From: Stigmatella ashevillena | GTDB taxonomy: Bacteria; Myxococcota; Myxococcia; Myxococcales; Myxococcaceae | NCBI RefSeq assembly: GCF_028368975.1 | Contig: NZ_JAQNDM010000002.1 | Coordinates: 8,054,425-8,118,424, forward strand | Direction of reading: 5' to 3' | DNA length: 64,000 bases | Shown: positions 25,069 to 29,129 of the stretch, piece after piece | Layout of the letters: the number at the start of each line of letters is the position of its first letter | Numbering within the stretch: position 1 is the stretch's first letter | Notes under the pieces: model-generated | The model's input: only the letters and a program-made list of their open reading frames with translations | The model's database searches: none | Told to the model about the DNA's origin: nothing | Program-made: the position numbers and the translations under genes

Positions 25069-26673
25069 ATGGATGTCCCATGCAGGGGTCCTCTCATGGC
25101 TTCGCCTTCCTCGACCGTCGTTCTGTCCCGGCACGAACTCGACGCGGTTTTGTTTGATCTCGATGGGGTGGTGACGCGGACCGCGCGGGTGCATGCCGCC
25201 GCGTGGAAGCGCCTCTTCGATGCGTACCTGGAGGAGCGCGCAAAGCGCACGGAGGGGCGCTTCCAGCCCTTCACGGAAGAGGACTACCGGCGATTCGTGG
25301 ATGGGCGGCCTCGCCTGGAGGGCATCCGGTGCTTCCTGGAGAGCCGGGGCCTCTCGGTGCCCGAGGGGACACCTGAAGACGGCCCCGAGGCGGAGACGGT
25401 GCATGGCTTCGGGGTGCGCAAGAATGCCTATTTCCAGGAGGCCCTGAAGCGTCAGGGCGTGGAGGTGTACCCCCCTGCGGTGCGTCTGCTGGAGCAGGTC
25501 CGGGCGGCGGGGTTTCGCACGGCGGTGGTGACGTCCAGCCGCAACGGCGAGGCCGTCCTGCGCGCGGCGGGATTGGAGCATCTGTTCGACGCCCGGGTGG
25601 ATGGGGTGGAAGCCGGACGGCTGGAGCTGCCAGGCAAGCCGGCCCCGGACACGTTTCTGGAGGGTGCGAGGCGGCTAGGAGTGGTGCCCGAGCGCGCCGC
25701 GGTGCTGGAGGACGCACGGTCCGGGGTCCAGGCGGGGAGGCGAGGCGGCTTCGGATGCGTCATTGGAGTGCGCCGCTCGGGAGCCGAGGGGGCCCTGGTG
25801 AAGGCTGGAGCGGATGTGGAGGTGGCGGAGCTGTCTTCCGTGGCGGTGGAGGCGGACATGGAAACGCGGCCCATGCGAGAGGTTCCCCTGGCGCTGGAGC
25901 GGCGTGAGGAGTGGTTGAGGCGGATGACGGGCCGGGTGGCTGTCTTCCTGGACTACGACGGCACGCTGACGCCCATCGTTCCCAATCCCGAGGACGCCCG
26001 CCTGGGAGACAGCATGCGGGCCACCCTGGACGAGCTGGCCAGGTGCATCCCCGTGGCCATCGTGAGCGGCAGGGACCTGCCCATGCTGAAGGAGTTCGTG
26101 CGGCTCCAGGGCGTGTACTTCGCTGGCAGCCACGGCTTCGACATCGAGGGGCCGGGAGAGCACCGCTTCCAGCACGAAGAGGGCAGGGCGCTGCTGCCCG
26201 AACTGGACGCCGCGGAGCGGGAGTTGAAGGCGGTGCTCGCGGGCATTCCAGGCGCGGGGGTGGAGCGCAAGCGGTTCAGCGTGGCGGTGCACTGGCGGCA
26301 TGTGGAGGACGCGCGGTTGCCAGAGGTGGAACAGGCGGTGGCGGCGGTTCAGGCCCGTCACCCGAAGCTGAGCCGGTCCGGGGGAAAGAAGGTGTTCGAG
26401 CTCCGTCCCAACATCGACTGGCACAAGGGGCGTGCCGTGGACTGGTTGCTGAAGGCCCTGGGGCTGGAGGGTGAAGGCGTCCTGCCGGTGTTCGTTGGAG
26501 ATGATCTCACGGATGAGGATGCCTTCCGGACGTTGAAGGGCCGGGGACTGGGGTTGGTGGTACGGGGAGATGAAGAGCGGCCCACGGCGGCGGATTACGC
26601 GCTGCGGGATGTCGAAGAGGTGCGCCGCTTCCTGGGATTGCTCATCGCTCACGTAAGAGGCGCCACGCGATGA
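25069..26673 (+). CDS. otsB: fused beta-phosphoglucomutase-like HAD domain and trehalose-6-phosphate phosphatase
   Basis: 534 residues. Domain 1 (about 22-265) is a HAD of the beta-phosphoglucomutase type: nucleophile/acid pair Asp30-Asp32 (DLDGVVTRT), cap domain, TSSRNGEAVL, and LEDARSGVQAG. Domain 2 (about 285-530) is OtsB: Asp295/Asp297 in LDYDGTLTPI, VSGRD, GSHGFDIEG, FELRPNIDWHKGRAVDWLL, and GDDLTDEDAF. OtsB converts trehalose 6-phosphate to trehalose. The strong AGGAGG four bases before 25069 fixes the start. The stop overlaps the next ATG (ATGA, 26670-26673). Together the two genes equal the three-domain mycobacterial OtsB1 (HAD-OtsB-GH65) split in two. Confidence 0.92.
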   Translation: MDVPCRGPLMASPSSTVVLSRHELDAVLFDLDGVVTRTARVHAAAWKRLFDAYLEERAKRTEGRFQPFTEEDYRRFVDGRPRLEGIRCFLESRGLSVPEGTPEDGPEAETVHGFGVRKNAYFQEALKRQGVEVYPPAVRLLEQVRAAGFRTAVVTSSRNGEAVLRAAGLEHLFDARVDGVEAGRLELPGKPAPDTFLEGARRLGVVPERAAVLEDARSGVQAGRRGGFGCVIGVRRSGAEGALVKAGADVEVAELSSVAVEADMETRPMREVPLALERREEWLRRMTGRVAVFLDYDGTLTPIVPNPEDARLGDSMRATLDELARCIPVAIVSGRDLPMLKEFVRLQGVYFAGSHGFDIEGPGEHRFQHEEGRALLPELDAAERELKAVLAGIPGAGVERKRFSVAVHWRHVEDARLPEVEQAVAAVQARHPKLSRSGGKKVFELRPNIDWHKGRAVDWLLKALGLEGEGVLPVFVGDDLTDEDAFRTLKGRGLGLVVRGDEERPTAADYALRDVEEVRRFLGLLIAHVRGATR

Positions 26674-29129
26674 GGCCCGAGCACGGGTTGTTCGCATACG
26701 AGGGCTTCGAGCCCGCGCAGGAGAAGCTGCGCGAGGCGCTGTGCACGCTGGGCAATGGTTATTTCGCCACGCGAGGGGCGGCGCCGGAGGCCGAGGCGGA
26801 CGAGGTGCACTACCCAGGGACGTACCTGGCGGGTGGCTACAACCGGTTGAAGACGGAGCTGGCGGGCCGGGTGGTGGAGAACGAGGACCTGGTCAATCAG
26901 CCCAACTGGTTACCCCTCTGGTTCCGCATCGAGGACGGGGATTGGTTCAACGTGAGCACCGTGAAGGTGTTGGCTTACCGGCAGGTGCTGGACATGGAGC
27001 GGGGGCTGTTGCTGCGCACGGTGTCCTTCGAGGACTCACGGGGCCGACGCACGCGGGTGGACCAGCGGCGCTTCGTGCACATGCGGCACAAACACCTGGC
27101 GGGACAGGAACTGATGCTGGTGCCCGAGAACTGGAGCGGGCGGGTGCAGGTGCGCTCCGCGCTGGATGGGCGAGTGGTCAATGGGGGCGTGCCGCGCTAC
27201 CAGCAGCTCAGCAGCAAGCACCTTCGGCTCGTGATGGCGAAGGAGGTGGACGCGGAGACGCTCCTGCTGGAGGTGGAGACGGTGCAGTCCCGCCTGGGCG
27301 TGGCGGAGGCGGCCCGGACGCGTTTGTACGTGGATGGGCACCGGGCGGAGGCACAGGGGGCCCTGGTCCAGGAGGAGGGCTTTCTCGCGCACGAGTTCAC
27401 CGTGGAGGTGAAGGCGCACCAGCGGCTGGGGGTGGAGAAGGTGGTAGCGCTGTACTCGTCCAAGGATCCTGCGGTGTCCGAGGCCGCGATGGAGGCGCGG
27501 CACGCGGTGAGGTGGGCCCCCGCACGCTTCGACGAGCTGGTGGCCACGCACGTCCAGGCCTGGACGCACCTGTGGAACCGAAGCGATCTGGACCTGGACG
27601 TGGCAGATCCGGACGGGACCCACCGGGCGCTGCGGCTTCACATCTTCCATCTGCTTCAGACCGTTTCGCCGCACACCCTCGACCAGGACGCGGGCGTGCC
27701 CGCCCGGGGATGGCACGGTGAGGCGTACCGGGGTCACATCTTCTGGGATGAGCTGTTCATCTTCCCCTTCCTCAACTTGAGGCTCCCCGCCTTGACGCGG
27801 GCCCTCTTGCGCTACCGCTTCCGGCGGTTGGGGCGAGCGCGCGAGGCCGCGCACGAGGCGGGCTTCCGGGGGGCCATGTTCCCTTGGCAAAGCGGCAGTG
27901 ATGGCAGTGAGGAAAGTCCCCGGGTGCACCTCAATCCGCGCTCGGGACGCTGGCTGCCGGACGAGACGTGGTTGCAGCGGCACATCAATGCCGCGGTGGC
28001 CTACAACATCTGGCAGTACTACCAGGCCACGGACGACTCCGAGTTCCTGTACTTCCACGGGGCGGAGATGCTGTTGGAGTTGGCGCGTTTCTGGGCGAGC
28101 GTGGCCCAGTGGAACCCGCAGTTGCGGCGCTACGAAATCAAGAAGGTGATGGGACCGGATGAGTACCACACGGGGTACCCGGATCAGCCCGAGCCCGGCC
28201 TGAACAACAACACCTACACGAACCTCATGGCGGTCTGGGTCCTGTGCAAGGGCTTGGAGGTGCTGCGGCTGATGCCCAAGGAGCGGCGGGAGGAGCTCCT
28301 CGAGAGCCTGGAACTGGAACCCTCAGAGCTGGCGCACTGGGAGGACGTGAGCCGAAAGATGCGGCTGGTGTTCCATGAGGACGGCGTCCTCAGCCAGTTC
28401 GAGGGTTATGAGCAGCTCCAGGAGTTCGACTGGGAGGCGTACCGCGCGCGCTACGGGGACATCCAACGGCTGGATCGCATCCTGGAGGCAGAAGGGGATT
28501 CGCCCAACCGCTACAAGCTGTCGAAGCAGGCGGATGTGTTGATGCTGTTCTACCTGCTCTCCTCTGAGGAGTTGAAGGAACTCTTCGAGCGGTTGGGGTA
28601 CCCCTTCGACCTGGAGATGATCCCGAAGACGGTCGACTACTACCTCCAGCGCACCTCGCATGGCTCGACGCTGAGTGGGGTGGTGCACTCCTGGGTGCTG
28701 GCCCGCAGTGACCGGCCCCGCTCCTGGAAGCTGTTCATCGAGGCGCTGCAGAGCGACATCTCGGATGTTCAGGGGGGAACGACCCAGGAGGGCATCCACC
28801 TGGGGGCCATGGCCGGGACGGTGGATCTCATGCAGCGCGCCTATACGGGCATCGAGATGCGCGGGGAACGGTTGCACTTCAATCCCAACCTGCCGGAGGG
28901 CATGAGGCGTCTGAAGTTCTCGTTGCGTTACCGCAGGCACCTGCTGGACGTGGAGATCACCCCCGAGACGCTGGTGCTCGTCAGCCGCTGGGACGCCCAG
29001 GGGCCGCTGAAAGTGGCCGTGCGAGGCGCGCACCACCTGCTACGGCCCTCCGAAACACGCCGGTTCCACCTCTCCCAGAAGTCATCCTGGGAGCCAGTGG
29101 AAGGGGCAGGCATGCGCCCACAGGGGTGA
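26670..29129 (+). CDS. glycoside hydrolase family 65 (trehalose phosphorylase-like)
   Basis: 819 residues, soluble. GH65 N-terminal beta-sandwich (FEPAQEKLREALCTLGNGYFATRGAAPEAEADEVHYPGTYLAGGYNRL, about 8-260) followed by the (alpha/alpha)6 barrel with GWHGEAYRGHIFWDELFIFPF, YRFRRLGRAREAAHEAGFRGAMFPWQSGSDG and the general-acid Glu498 in VMGPDEYHTGY. HGSTLSGVVHSWVLAR matches the phosphate-binding region of GH65 phosphorylases. Coupling to the beta-phosphoglucomutase domain upstream favours a phosphorylase releasing beta-glucose-1-phosphate from trehalose (or its phosphate) over a hydrolase. This specificity is inference. Confidence 0.92.
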   Translation: MRPEHGLFAYEGFEPAQEKLREALCTLGNGYFATRGAAPEAEADEVHYPGTYLAGGYNRLKTELAGRVVENEDLVNQPNWLPLWFRIEDGDWFNVSTVKVLAYRQVLDMERGLLLRTVSFEDSRGRRTRVDQRRFVHMRHKHLAGQELMLVPENWSGRVQVRSALDGRVVNGGVPRYQQLSSKHLRLVMAKEVDAETLLLEVETVQSRLGVAEAARTRLYVDGHRAEAQGALVQEEGFLAHEFTVEVKAHQRLGVEKVVALYSSKDPAVSEAAMEARHAVRWAPARFDELVATHVQAWTHLWNRSDLDLDVADPDGTHRALRLHIFHLLQTVSPHTLDQDAGVPARGWHGEAYRGHIFWDELFIFPFLNLRLPALTRALLRYRFRRLGRAREAAHEAGFRGAMFPWQSGSDGSEESPRVHLNPRSGRWLPDETWLQRHINAAVAYNIWQYYQATDDSEFLYFHGAEMLLELARFWASVAQWNPQLRRYEIKKVMGPDEYHTGYPDQPEPGLNNNTYTNLMAVWVLCKGLEVLRLMPKERREELLESLELEPSELAHWEDVSRKMRLVFHEDGVLSQFEGYEQLQEFDWEAYRARYGDIQRLDRILEAEGDSPNRYKLSKQADVLMLFYLLSSEELKELFERLGYPFDLEMIPKTVDYYLQRTSHGSTLSGVVHSWVLARSDRPRSWKLFIEALQSDISDVQGGTTQEGIHLGAMAGTVDLMQRAYTGIEMRGERLHFNPNLPEGMRRLKFSLRYRRHLLDVEITPETLVLVSRWDAQGPLKVAVRGAHHLLRPSETRRFHLSQKSSWEPVEGAGMRPQG

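What the first reader, a model, noticed from the sequence alone, without database searches (positions are those of the whole stretch)
25069..29129. Split OtsB1: two-gene beta-phosphoglucomutase/OtsB/GH65 trehalose module
The three domains fused in mycobacterial OtsB1 occur here in the same order on two genes overlapping by 4 bases. The set could run trehalose-6-P to trehalose to glucose plus beta-G1P to G6P, a compact trehalose recycling path. All catalytic residues I can check are intact.
Basis: partly seen in the sequence, partly recalled or inferred. Interest (0 to 1): 0.6.

Follow-up and report, generated by a model that had tools for sequence, protein, structure and literature searches.

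The report
Possible nucleotide-free trehalose-making gene pair
A myxobacterium carries two overlapping genes for three linked sugar-phosphate enzymes; relatives in many bacterial phyla suggest that together they may make the protective sugar trehalose directly from two glucose-6-phosphates, an idea that still needs an enzyme test.

Summary
In detail: a HAD(beta-phosphoglucomutase)-OtsB gene (25069-26673) and a GH65 gene (26670-29129) overlap by 4 bases, with catalytic residues in place. The 80 nearest named relatives, from many phyla, carry the module split, as one three-domain protein, or without OtsB. The GH65 protein lacks the published trehalose-phosphorylase motif (TRIGPP); at the four positions that align firmly it reads D-Q-G-P, one residue from trehalose-6-phosphate phosphorylase (D-Q-G-Q), and it groups with lactic-acid-bacterial T6P enzymes. 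In support, no OtsA was found in 24 of 80 module genomes; 19 of these have one OtsB, 17 of HAD-OtsB size; PTS EIIC in 1 of 24. Against: the window's genome has a fused OtsA-OtsB and PTS EIIC genes; 21 of the 24 are MAGs; 5 of 24 lack OtsB; a paper states that OtsB1 lacks phosphatase activity. Synthesis is my best guess at moderate confidence; T6P breakdown or clearance is the main rival. I found no measured activity for the window's own group.

The parts
25069..26673 (+). HAD (beta-phosphoglucomutase type)-OtsB (trehalose-6-phosphate phosphatase type) fusion gene, 534 aa
   Evidence: GAGGAGG 4 bases before the ATG; first 14 residues predicted with pLDDT under 50
25141..25839 (+). HAD domain, about residues 25-257; D30, D32, T38, H42, R82, S157, K190, E214, D215
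   Evidence: aligned to 8h5s (Rv3400) and L. lactis bPGM; residues in 51 sequences
25933..26646 (+). OtsB domain, about residues 289-526; D295, D297, S333, K453, D478, D479, D482, E483
   Evidence: PF02358, TIGR00685, these residues invariant in 51 sequences
26670..26673 (+). ATGA overlap of the two genes
   Evidence: in relatives of the same layout a 4-base overlap was the junction in 22 of 39, taking the start codon nearest the OtsB stop
26670..29129 (+). GH65 protein, 819 aa, trehalose-6-phosphate-phosphorylase-like; acid E498, phosphate site R346/S666/T667/H710, clade-specific R386, R437, R600

Best explanation
The two genes encode a reversible trehalose-6-phosphate (T6P) phosphorylase (GH65) and a bifunctional beta-phosphoglucomutase/T6P phosphatase. 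The phosphorylase interconverts T6P + Pi with beta-glucose-1-phosphate + glucose-6-phosphate; the HAD domain interconverts bG1P and G6P; OtsB hydrolyses T6P irreversibly. I propose that net flux usually runs towards trehalose: 2 G6P -> bG1P + G6P -> T6P + Pi -> trehalose + 2 Pi, with no UDP- or ADP-glucose. Shown here: genes, domains, conserved residues, clade, and genomes in which no OtsA was found. Inferred: T6P specificity, direction, any channelling. Chance that GH65 acts on T6P: about 0.75; that net flux is synthetic, given that: about 0.55.
For: Motif: window D-Q-G-P at four firm positions; sister genera D-Q-G-Q as in T6P phosphorylase. With all six positions as I anchored them, 58 of 88 relatives are exactly DQGQDE and 84 of 88 match at least 5 of 6. 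Nearest solved structure 9lb6, named a T6P enzyme: 481 bits against 382 for kojibiose phosphorylase, Z 43.7 against 39.5. R386 and R600 are R in 97 of 97 clade rows, R437 in 93 of 97, and R in none of 7 outgroup rows, though one outgroup row has K at 600 and one H at 437: candidate 6-phosphate binders. OtsA-like genes within 5 kb of the module in 5 of 88 loci tie it to T6P. No OtsA match in 24 of 80 module genomes, three of them isolates (Kineobactrum sediminis, Marinobacter orientalis, Desulfobulbus alkaliphilus); 19 of the 24 have exactly one OtsB match, 17 of these in frames of 519-638 aa; PTS EIIC in 1 of 24. Of 15 OtsA-less HAD-OtsB proteins, 14 keep all 14 residues compared and one has E-to-D. 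Papers (passages): L. lactis without bPGM runs T6P phosphorylase in reverse and forms T6P (PMC7608592); an enzyme mix with a T6P phosphorylase reached 93% yield of T6P (PMC13121652).
Against: I saw no assay on this group's proteins. Position 402 is P in the window, as in kojibiose phosphorylase. Positions 416 and 585 depend on re-anchoring; unshifted the window read DQGPEE. 9lb6 is labelled hydrolase in one field and phosphatase in another; I saw no paper on it, and did not fetch L. lactis TrePP or Caldithrix CaGP. OtsA is present in 56 of 80 module genomes, in 15 of the 16 myxobacterial genomes checked and in the window's genome, which also has two PTS EIIC matches. OtsA beside the module in 5 loci could equally feed breakdown. 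Five of 24 OtsA-less genomes lack OtsB too; 17 of 80 loci have HAD and GH65 without OtsB beside them. 21 of the 24 are MAGs, and near-identical modules L052/L053 lie in one MAG without and one with OtsA. In the control genomes PF02358 rings in B. subtilis, where PF00982 does not, so an OtsB-type match without OtsA is not unique to this module. All three OtsA-less isolates have TreY, two also TreS. Desulfobulbus shows no HAD beside its module. PMC11046441 (passage) says only OtsB2, not OtsB1, has phosphatase activity.
Confidence: 0.42

Rival explanations
1. T6P breakdown or clearance: GH65 phosphorolyses T6P (from OtsA or import) to G6P + bG1P, the HAD domain returns bG1P to G6P, and OtsB is a second outlet. 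The module drains T6P and recovers hexose phosphate.
For: This is the described direction of T6P phosphorylase with bPGM in L. lactis (PMC7608592, passages). The window genome has two GT20 matches, one running into OtsB, and two PTS EIIC matches; 15 of 16 myxobacterial genomes checked have OtsA. T6P toxicity in M. tuberculosis is in the title of PMC5148154 (listing).
Against: No OtsA match in 24 of 80 module genomes and PTS EIIC in only 1 of these 24, so those carriers have no obvious T6P source. A fused phosphatase would divert the substrate of a recovery path.
Confidence: 0.3
2. One reading: OtsB makes trehalose, GH65 phosphorolyses it to glucose + bG1P, the HAD domain makes G6P.
For: It uses all three enzymes in sequence. 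Some other myxobacteria pair a HAD with a GH65 bearing trehalose-phosphorylase residues (T, R at 64, 392: L023, L024, L026).
Against: Motif and clade are nearer T6P enzymes.
Confidence: 0.1
3. GH65 uses another phosphorylated acceptor, and OtsB dephosphorylates that product.
For: P at 402 in the window and its two nearest rows; forms without OtsB vary more at 394 and 402; five OtsA-less genomes lack OtsB.
Against: The OtsB domain passes the trehalose-phosphatase equivalog cut-off; OtsA-like genes lie beside the module in 5 of 88 loci.
Confidence: 0.13
4. GH65 is a hydrolase of T6P rather than a phosphorylase.
For: PDB names the 9lb6 molecule trehalose-6-phosphate hydrolase.
Against: Phosphate-site residues R/S/T/H are kept, as R/S/S/H is in the phosphorylase 4ktp; the hydrolase FjGH65A has lost that site and gained Glu616 (PMC8626586, passages).
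Confidence: 0.05

Closest known systems
Trehalose-6-phosphate phosphorylase TrePP + bPGM (PgmB), Lactococcus lactis
   Same: GH65 of the T6P type paired with a bPGM. A relative from a Lactiplantibacillus plantarum plasmid (L136) is followed by pgmB and groups with 9lb6, sister to the other 95 rows of the window clade
   Different: L. lactis feeds it with PTS-imported T6P and uses it for breakdown (PMC7608592, passages); here OtsB is fused to the bPGM, and 23 of the 24 OtsA-less carriers show no PTS EIIC. The L. lactis protein itself was not compared
Mycobacterial OtsB1 (Rv2006, 1327 aa)
   Different: Two genes here; in Rhodococcus L134 only part of the HAD domain aligns. OtsB1 is uncharacterised (PMC12090744, passages) or said to lack phosphatase activity (PMC11046441, passage)
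Rv3400 (8h5s) bPGM
   Same: Closest solved relative of the HAD domain, 221 bits
   Different: The solved chain is a single HAD domain of 260 residues without OtsB
Caldithrix abyssi CaGP, T6P phosphorylase (PMC8537180)
   Same: Motif DQGQDE, as in sister genera of the window with my anchoring; the paper reports T6P formation from bG1P and G6P
   Different: Sequence not fetched, so clade membership was not tested
OtsA-OtsB pathway
   Same: Same intermediate and same phosphatase family
   Different: OtsA needs a nucleotide sugar; the proposed route does not

Membership tests
GH65 | GH65 N, central and C domains and the catalytic Glu | tested here: met
   PF03636, PF03632, PF03633 over cut-off; E498 aligned to CsKP E483
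GH65 phosphorylases | Phosphate site Lys, His and two Ser (PMC8626586, passages) | tested here: inconclusive
   R346, S666, T667, H710: R for K and T for S, the same set as 9lb6; phosphorylase 4ktp also has R
T6P phosphorylase (EC 2.4.1.216) | Motif DQGQDE at CsKP 64/392/394/402/416/585 | tested here: inconclusive
   D, Q, G, P at the four firm positions; D and E at the last two only after re-anchoring
T6P phosphorylase (EC 2.4.1.216) | Shares a clade with T6P enzymes apart from other GH65 specificities | tested here: inconclusive
   97-row clade, SH-aLRT 100, but quick tree with long-branch warnings, and its reference 9lb6 is inconsistently labelled
T6P phosphorylase (EC 2.4.1.216) | Pi-dependent cleavage or formation of T6P | not testable with these tools
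   needs an enzyme assay
Trehalose phosphorylase (EC 2.4.1.64) | Motif TRIGPP | tested here: not met
   D, Q, G, P against T, R, I, G at the four firm positions
Beta-phosphoglucomutase | HAD nucleophile, acid/base, Lys and Glu-Asp residues | tested here: met
   family model TIGR02009 over cut-off
Beta-phosphoglucomutase | NCBIfam equivalog TIGR01990 | tested here: not met
   98.0 bits against cut-off 189.4
Trehalose-6-phosphate phosphatase | TIGR00685 equivalog and catalytic residues | tested here: met
   166.6 bits against 68.05; residues
OtsB1 three-domain protein | HAD, OtsB and GH65 on one polypeptide | tested here: not met
   two ORFs overlapping by 4 bases

The most novel reading that the evidence does not exclude
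A further route of trehalose synthesis, spread over many phyla and independent of OtsA and nucleotide sugars: a bPGM/T6P-phosphorylase/OtsB module that condenses two G6P into trehalose, pulled by the phosphatase. In Mycobacteriales the OtsB1-type form would serve the low-oxygen, starved state.
Probability: 0.4. Interest if true: 0.8.

Novelty: new variant of a known kind. Interest (0 to 1): 0.55.

Why it matters
Trehalose protects many bacteria in drying, salt and dormancy (general knowledge). A route that spends no nucleotide sugar would be cheap when energy is low.

Tried and rejected
Trehalose phosphorylase for the window GH65: disfavoured by motif and clade. Myxobacteria-specific invention: rejected, since the 80 best named relatives, 52-61% identical, lie in many phyla. 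A co-occurrence test in the order of Marinobacter orientalis failed for lack of cases: 3 of 244 genomes matched HAD-OtsB at E <= 1e-40, the centre genome included. Completeness is not given for genomes reached through loci, so the OtsA count could not be filtered by quality. M. tuberculosis OtsB1 was sought only among plasmid hits; the listed rows gave one Mycolicibacterium plasmid with HAD-GH65 and no OtsB. A neighbour cluster of 18 loci, first read as cation ATPases from one representative, proved mixed: by motif 9 loci, plus L075 by its Pfam match, are of the cation (P2, name recalled) type, 6 look like heavy-metal ATPases, 2 are unclear. The TreY model rings in 13 of 14 control genomes, over cut-off in 3, so I counted only matches over cut-off. 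The supplement of PMC8537180 was not read. Rows dropped: L030 from the tree; L098 and L120 from alignment A3. The structure jobs got 23 of 89 GH65 rows (window, 80 named, 8 plasmid) and 23 of 51 HAD-OtsB rows. The OtsA check in myxobacteria covered 16 of the 25 genomes with a GH65 match, two of them (G150, G173) with a broken GH65 gene.
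Full report
What is there. Two genes on the + strand, 25069-26673 and 26670-29129, overlap by ATGA. The first encodes a HAD domain of the beta-phosphoglucomutase (bPGM) type followed by an OtsB domain; the second a full GH65 protein. The first start has GAGGAGG 4 bases ahead, although the first 14 residues are predicted with low confidence. The next genes downstream, an ABC transporter, lie on the other strand, so this looks like a two-gene unit.

Are the enzymes intact? The HAD domain aligns to Rv3400 (8h5s) and L. lactis bPGM with the expected residues. Of 22 HAD and OtsB positions checked in 51 HAD-OtsB sequences, 20 are invariant, E214 is E in 50 and T299 is T in 47. 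GH65 keeps its acid (E498) and a phosphate site R/S/T/H, where CsKP and maltose phosphorylase have K/S/S/H. FjGH65A, a GH65 hydrolase, has lost that site and uses Glu616 (PMC8626586, passages). The narrower bPGM equivalog model is not met.

Which sugar? PMC8537180 (I read parts 1-3 of 7) gives six specificity positions. Its assayed examples read TRIGPP (trehalose phosphorylase), EEAPWS (kojibiose) and DQGQDE (T6P phosphorylase CaGP); maltose phosphorylases read KV[MF]NES. In my first alignment the window reads D, Q, G, P, E, E. Positions 5 and 6 fall in gapped stretches; anchored on invariant D431 the window reads DQGPDE and sister genera DQGQDE. I treat the first four as firm. With that anchoring 58 of 88 relatives (80 named genome loci + 8 plasmid loci) are exactly DQGQDE and 84 of 88 match five or six. 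P at 402, in the window and its two nearest rows, is the kojibiose-type residue and leaves doubt. In a quick tree of 104 rows the window sits in a 97-row clade (SH-aLRT 100) with 9lb6 and a Lactiplantibacillus protein whose gene is followed by pgmB; kojibiose, maltose and glucosylglycerol phosphorylases, L020 and three trehalose-phosphorylase-like myxobacterial proteins fall outside; the program warned of long branches. The predicted fold is nearest 9lb6 (Z 43.7; next 39.5). 9lb6 (Weissella ceti) is called a T6P hydrolase in one field and a T6P phosphatase in another, and I saw no paper on it. R386 and R600 are R in 97 of 97 clade rows, R437 in 93 of 97; no outgroup row has R there, but one has K at 600 and one H at 437.

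How widespread? Layouts of the 80: HAD=OtsB + separate GH65, 39; one three-domain frame, 11; HAD=GH65 without OtsB, 13; HAD and GH65 separate without OtsB, 4; three separate genes, 1; OtsB with GH65 and no HAD found, 4; GH65 alone, 8. Seven of the 80 have little sequence ahead of GH65 and may be cut (classes from tblastn hits and stop-to-stop frames). On the tree, OtsB presence changes at least 5 times over 80 scored rows, triple/split at least 2 times over 58. Among 193 genomes drawn from the window's phylum, 25 have a GH65 match at E <= 1e-30 and 168 do not, two of the same genus included. Most of the closest group have HAD-OtsB next to GH65; in G161, G169, G177 and G188 a TGA lies inside the HAD-OtsB stretch, and in G165 the two domains are separate frames. 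G112 and G145 have HAD and GH65 (76-77% identical) without OtsB between them. So bPGM + GH65 is the steadier core and OtsB a frequent addition.

Which direction? Breakdown (T6P -> 2 G6P) leaves OtsB as a competitor. Only synthesis uses all three in sequence: G6P -> bG1P, bG1P + G6P -> T6P + Pi, T6P -> trehalose + Pi. From recalled textbook free energies, 2 G6P + H2O -> trehalose + 2 Pi should be favourable by roughly 15 kJ/mol; this is recall, not a call. Reverse action of T6P phosphorylase is on record: in L. lactis without bPGM it combines bG1P and G6P into T6P (PMC7608592, passages), and a three-enzyme mix reached 93% T6P yield (PMC13121652, passages).

The genomic test. I searched the 80 genomes for OtsA (PF00982): 35 of 50 and 21 of 30 match, so 24 of 80 do not. 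Of these 24, 19 have exactly one OtsB match and 5 none; 17 of the 19 lie in open frames of 519-638 aa, the size of HAD-OtsB, one in 1395 aa, one in 316 aa. PTS EIIC appears in 1 of 24, and twice in the window's own genome. TreY is over cut-off in 13 of 24, TreS in 10 of 24. Eight show none of OtsA, TreY, TreS; seven of these eight have OtsB. Three of the 14 relatives whose titles do not say MAG lack an OtsA match: Desulfobulbus alkaliphilus, Kineobactrum sediminis, Marinobacter orientalis. An OtsB without a T6P synthase or sugar PTS is best explained if GH65 makes the T6P. Against this: 21 of the 24 are MAGs, and twin modules L052/L053 lie in one MAG without and one with OtsA, so gaps matter. 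PF02358 also rings in the control B. subtilis, where PF00982 does not. All three isolates have TreY and two have TreS, so they may make trehalose otherwise (TreZ not searched); Desulfobulbus has no HAD found beside its module, and in Marinobacter orientalis HAD-OtsB sits with a second GH65 copy. The five OtsA-less genomes with no OtsB need another explanation or have gaps. In the window's group 15 of the 16 genomes checked have OtsA; in the window genome it continues in frame into an OtsB domain, besides TreY and TreS.

Surroundings. By BLAST clusters of which one representative each was scanned with Pfam: OtsA within 5 kb in 5 of 88 loci, PfkB kinases in 7, PEP-synthase-like proteins in 7, phosphoketolase in 4, Crp-type regulators in 4. 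Cation ATPases lie near about 10 of 88; the 28 genomes searched carry 0-6 matches of that family each. Rhodococcus plasmid copies sit near universal stress proteins, a response regulator, wax ester synthase and a hydrogenase. M. tuberculosis OtsB1 is in the DosR set together with the cation ATPase ctpF (PMC2867773, passages) and was found only in carbon-starved cells (PMC12090744, passages). I infer a role in low-energy states.

What is known. PMC11046441 (passage) says only OtsB2 has T6P phosphatase activity and an otsB1 mutant has no obvious phenotype. PMC12090744 (passages) calls OtsB1 biochemically uncharacterised and says the 2004 claim of no activity came without data. The T6P review PMC12125463 (passages) gives T6P phosphorylase in the breakdown direction. 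In Myxococcus xanthus, otsAB, treY and treS rise during glycerol-induced sporulation (PMC2875238, passages). In the searches (open-access library, listings capped; most subscription papers missing) I saw no paper that gives this three-domain module a function or proposes synthesis through it.

Verdict. Direction is open: synthesis is favoured by the OtsA-less carriers and weakened by MAG gaps, by the five without OtsB, by the OtsA-bearing myxobacteria and by the report that OtsB1 lacks phosphatase activity.

Noticed in passing
L132 (G218, Marinobacter orientalis), 1504-4439: A second module copy in the order GH65-HAD-OtsB, on the same contig as TreY and TreS matches and within about 10 kb of two cation ATPase matches.
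   Followed up: partly
window 25069-26673, residues 196-531: M. tuberculosis OtsB2 (5gvx) aligns across the HAD-OtsB boundary; its N-terminal part looks like a worn HAD domain, as if OtsB2 came from such a fusion.
   Followed up: no
L023, L024, L026: Other families of the same order pair a HAD with a GH65 bearing trehalose-phosphorylase residues (T, R at positions 64, 392).
   Followed up: partly
L017, L028, L018, L029: In G150 and G173 the GH65 match falls into two pieces, and in G150 the HAD match too: decay or assembly error.
   Followed up: no
window 29929-31380 (-): A solute-binding domain and an ABC permease domain on one polypeptide, next to an ABC ATPase.
   Followed up: no
L002 (G000:C2:9465906-9467297): A second, weaker GT20 match in the window genome (226 bits); no OtsB hit in that locus with the window OtsB as query.
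   Followed up: no
window 59514-61142 (-): A gene of the BshC family (bacillithiol biosynthesis in Pfam's naming).
   Followed up: no
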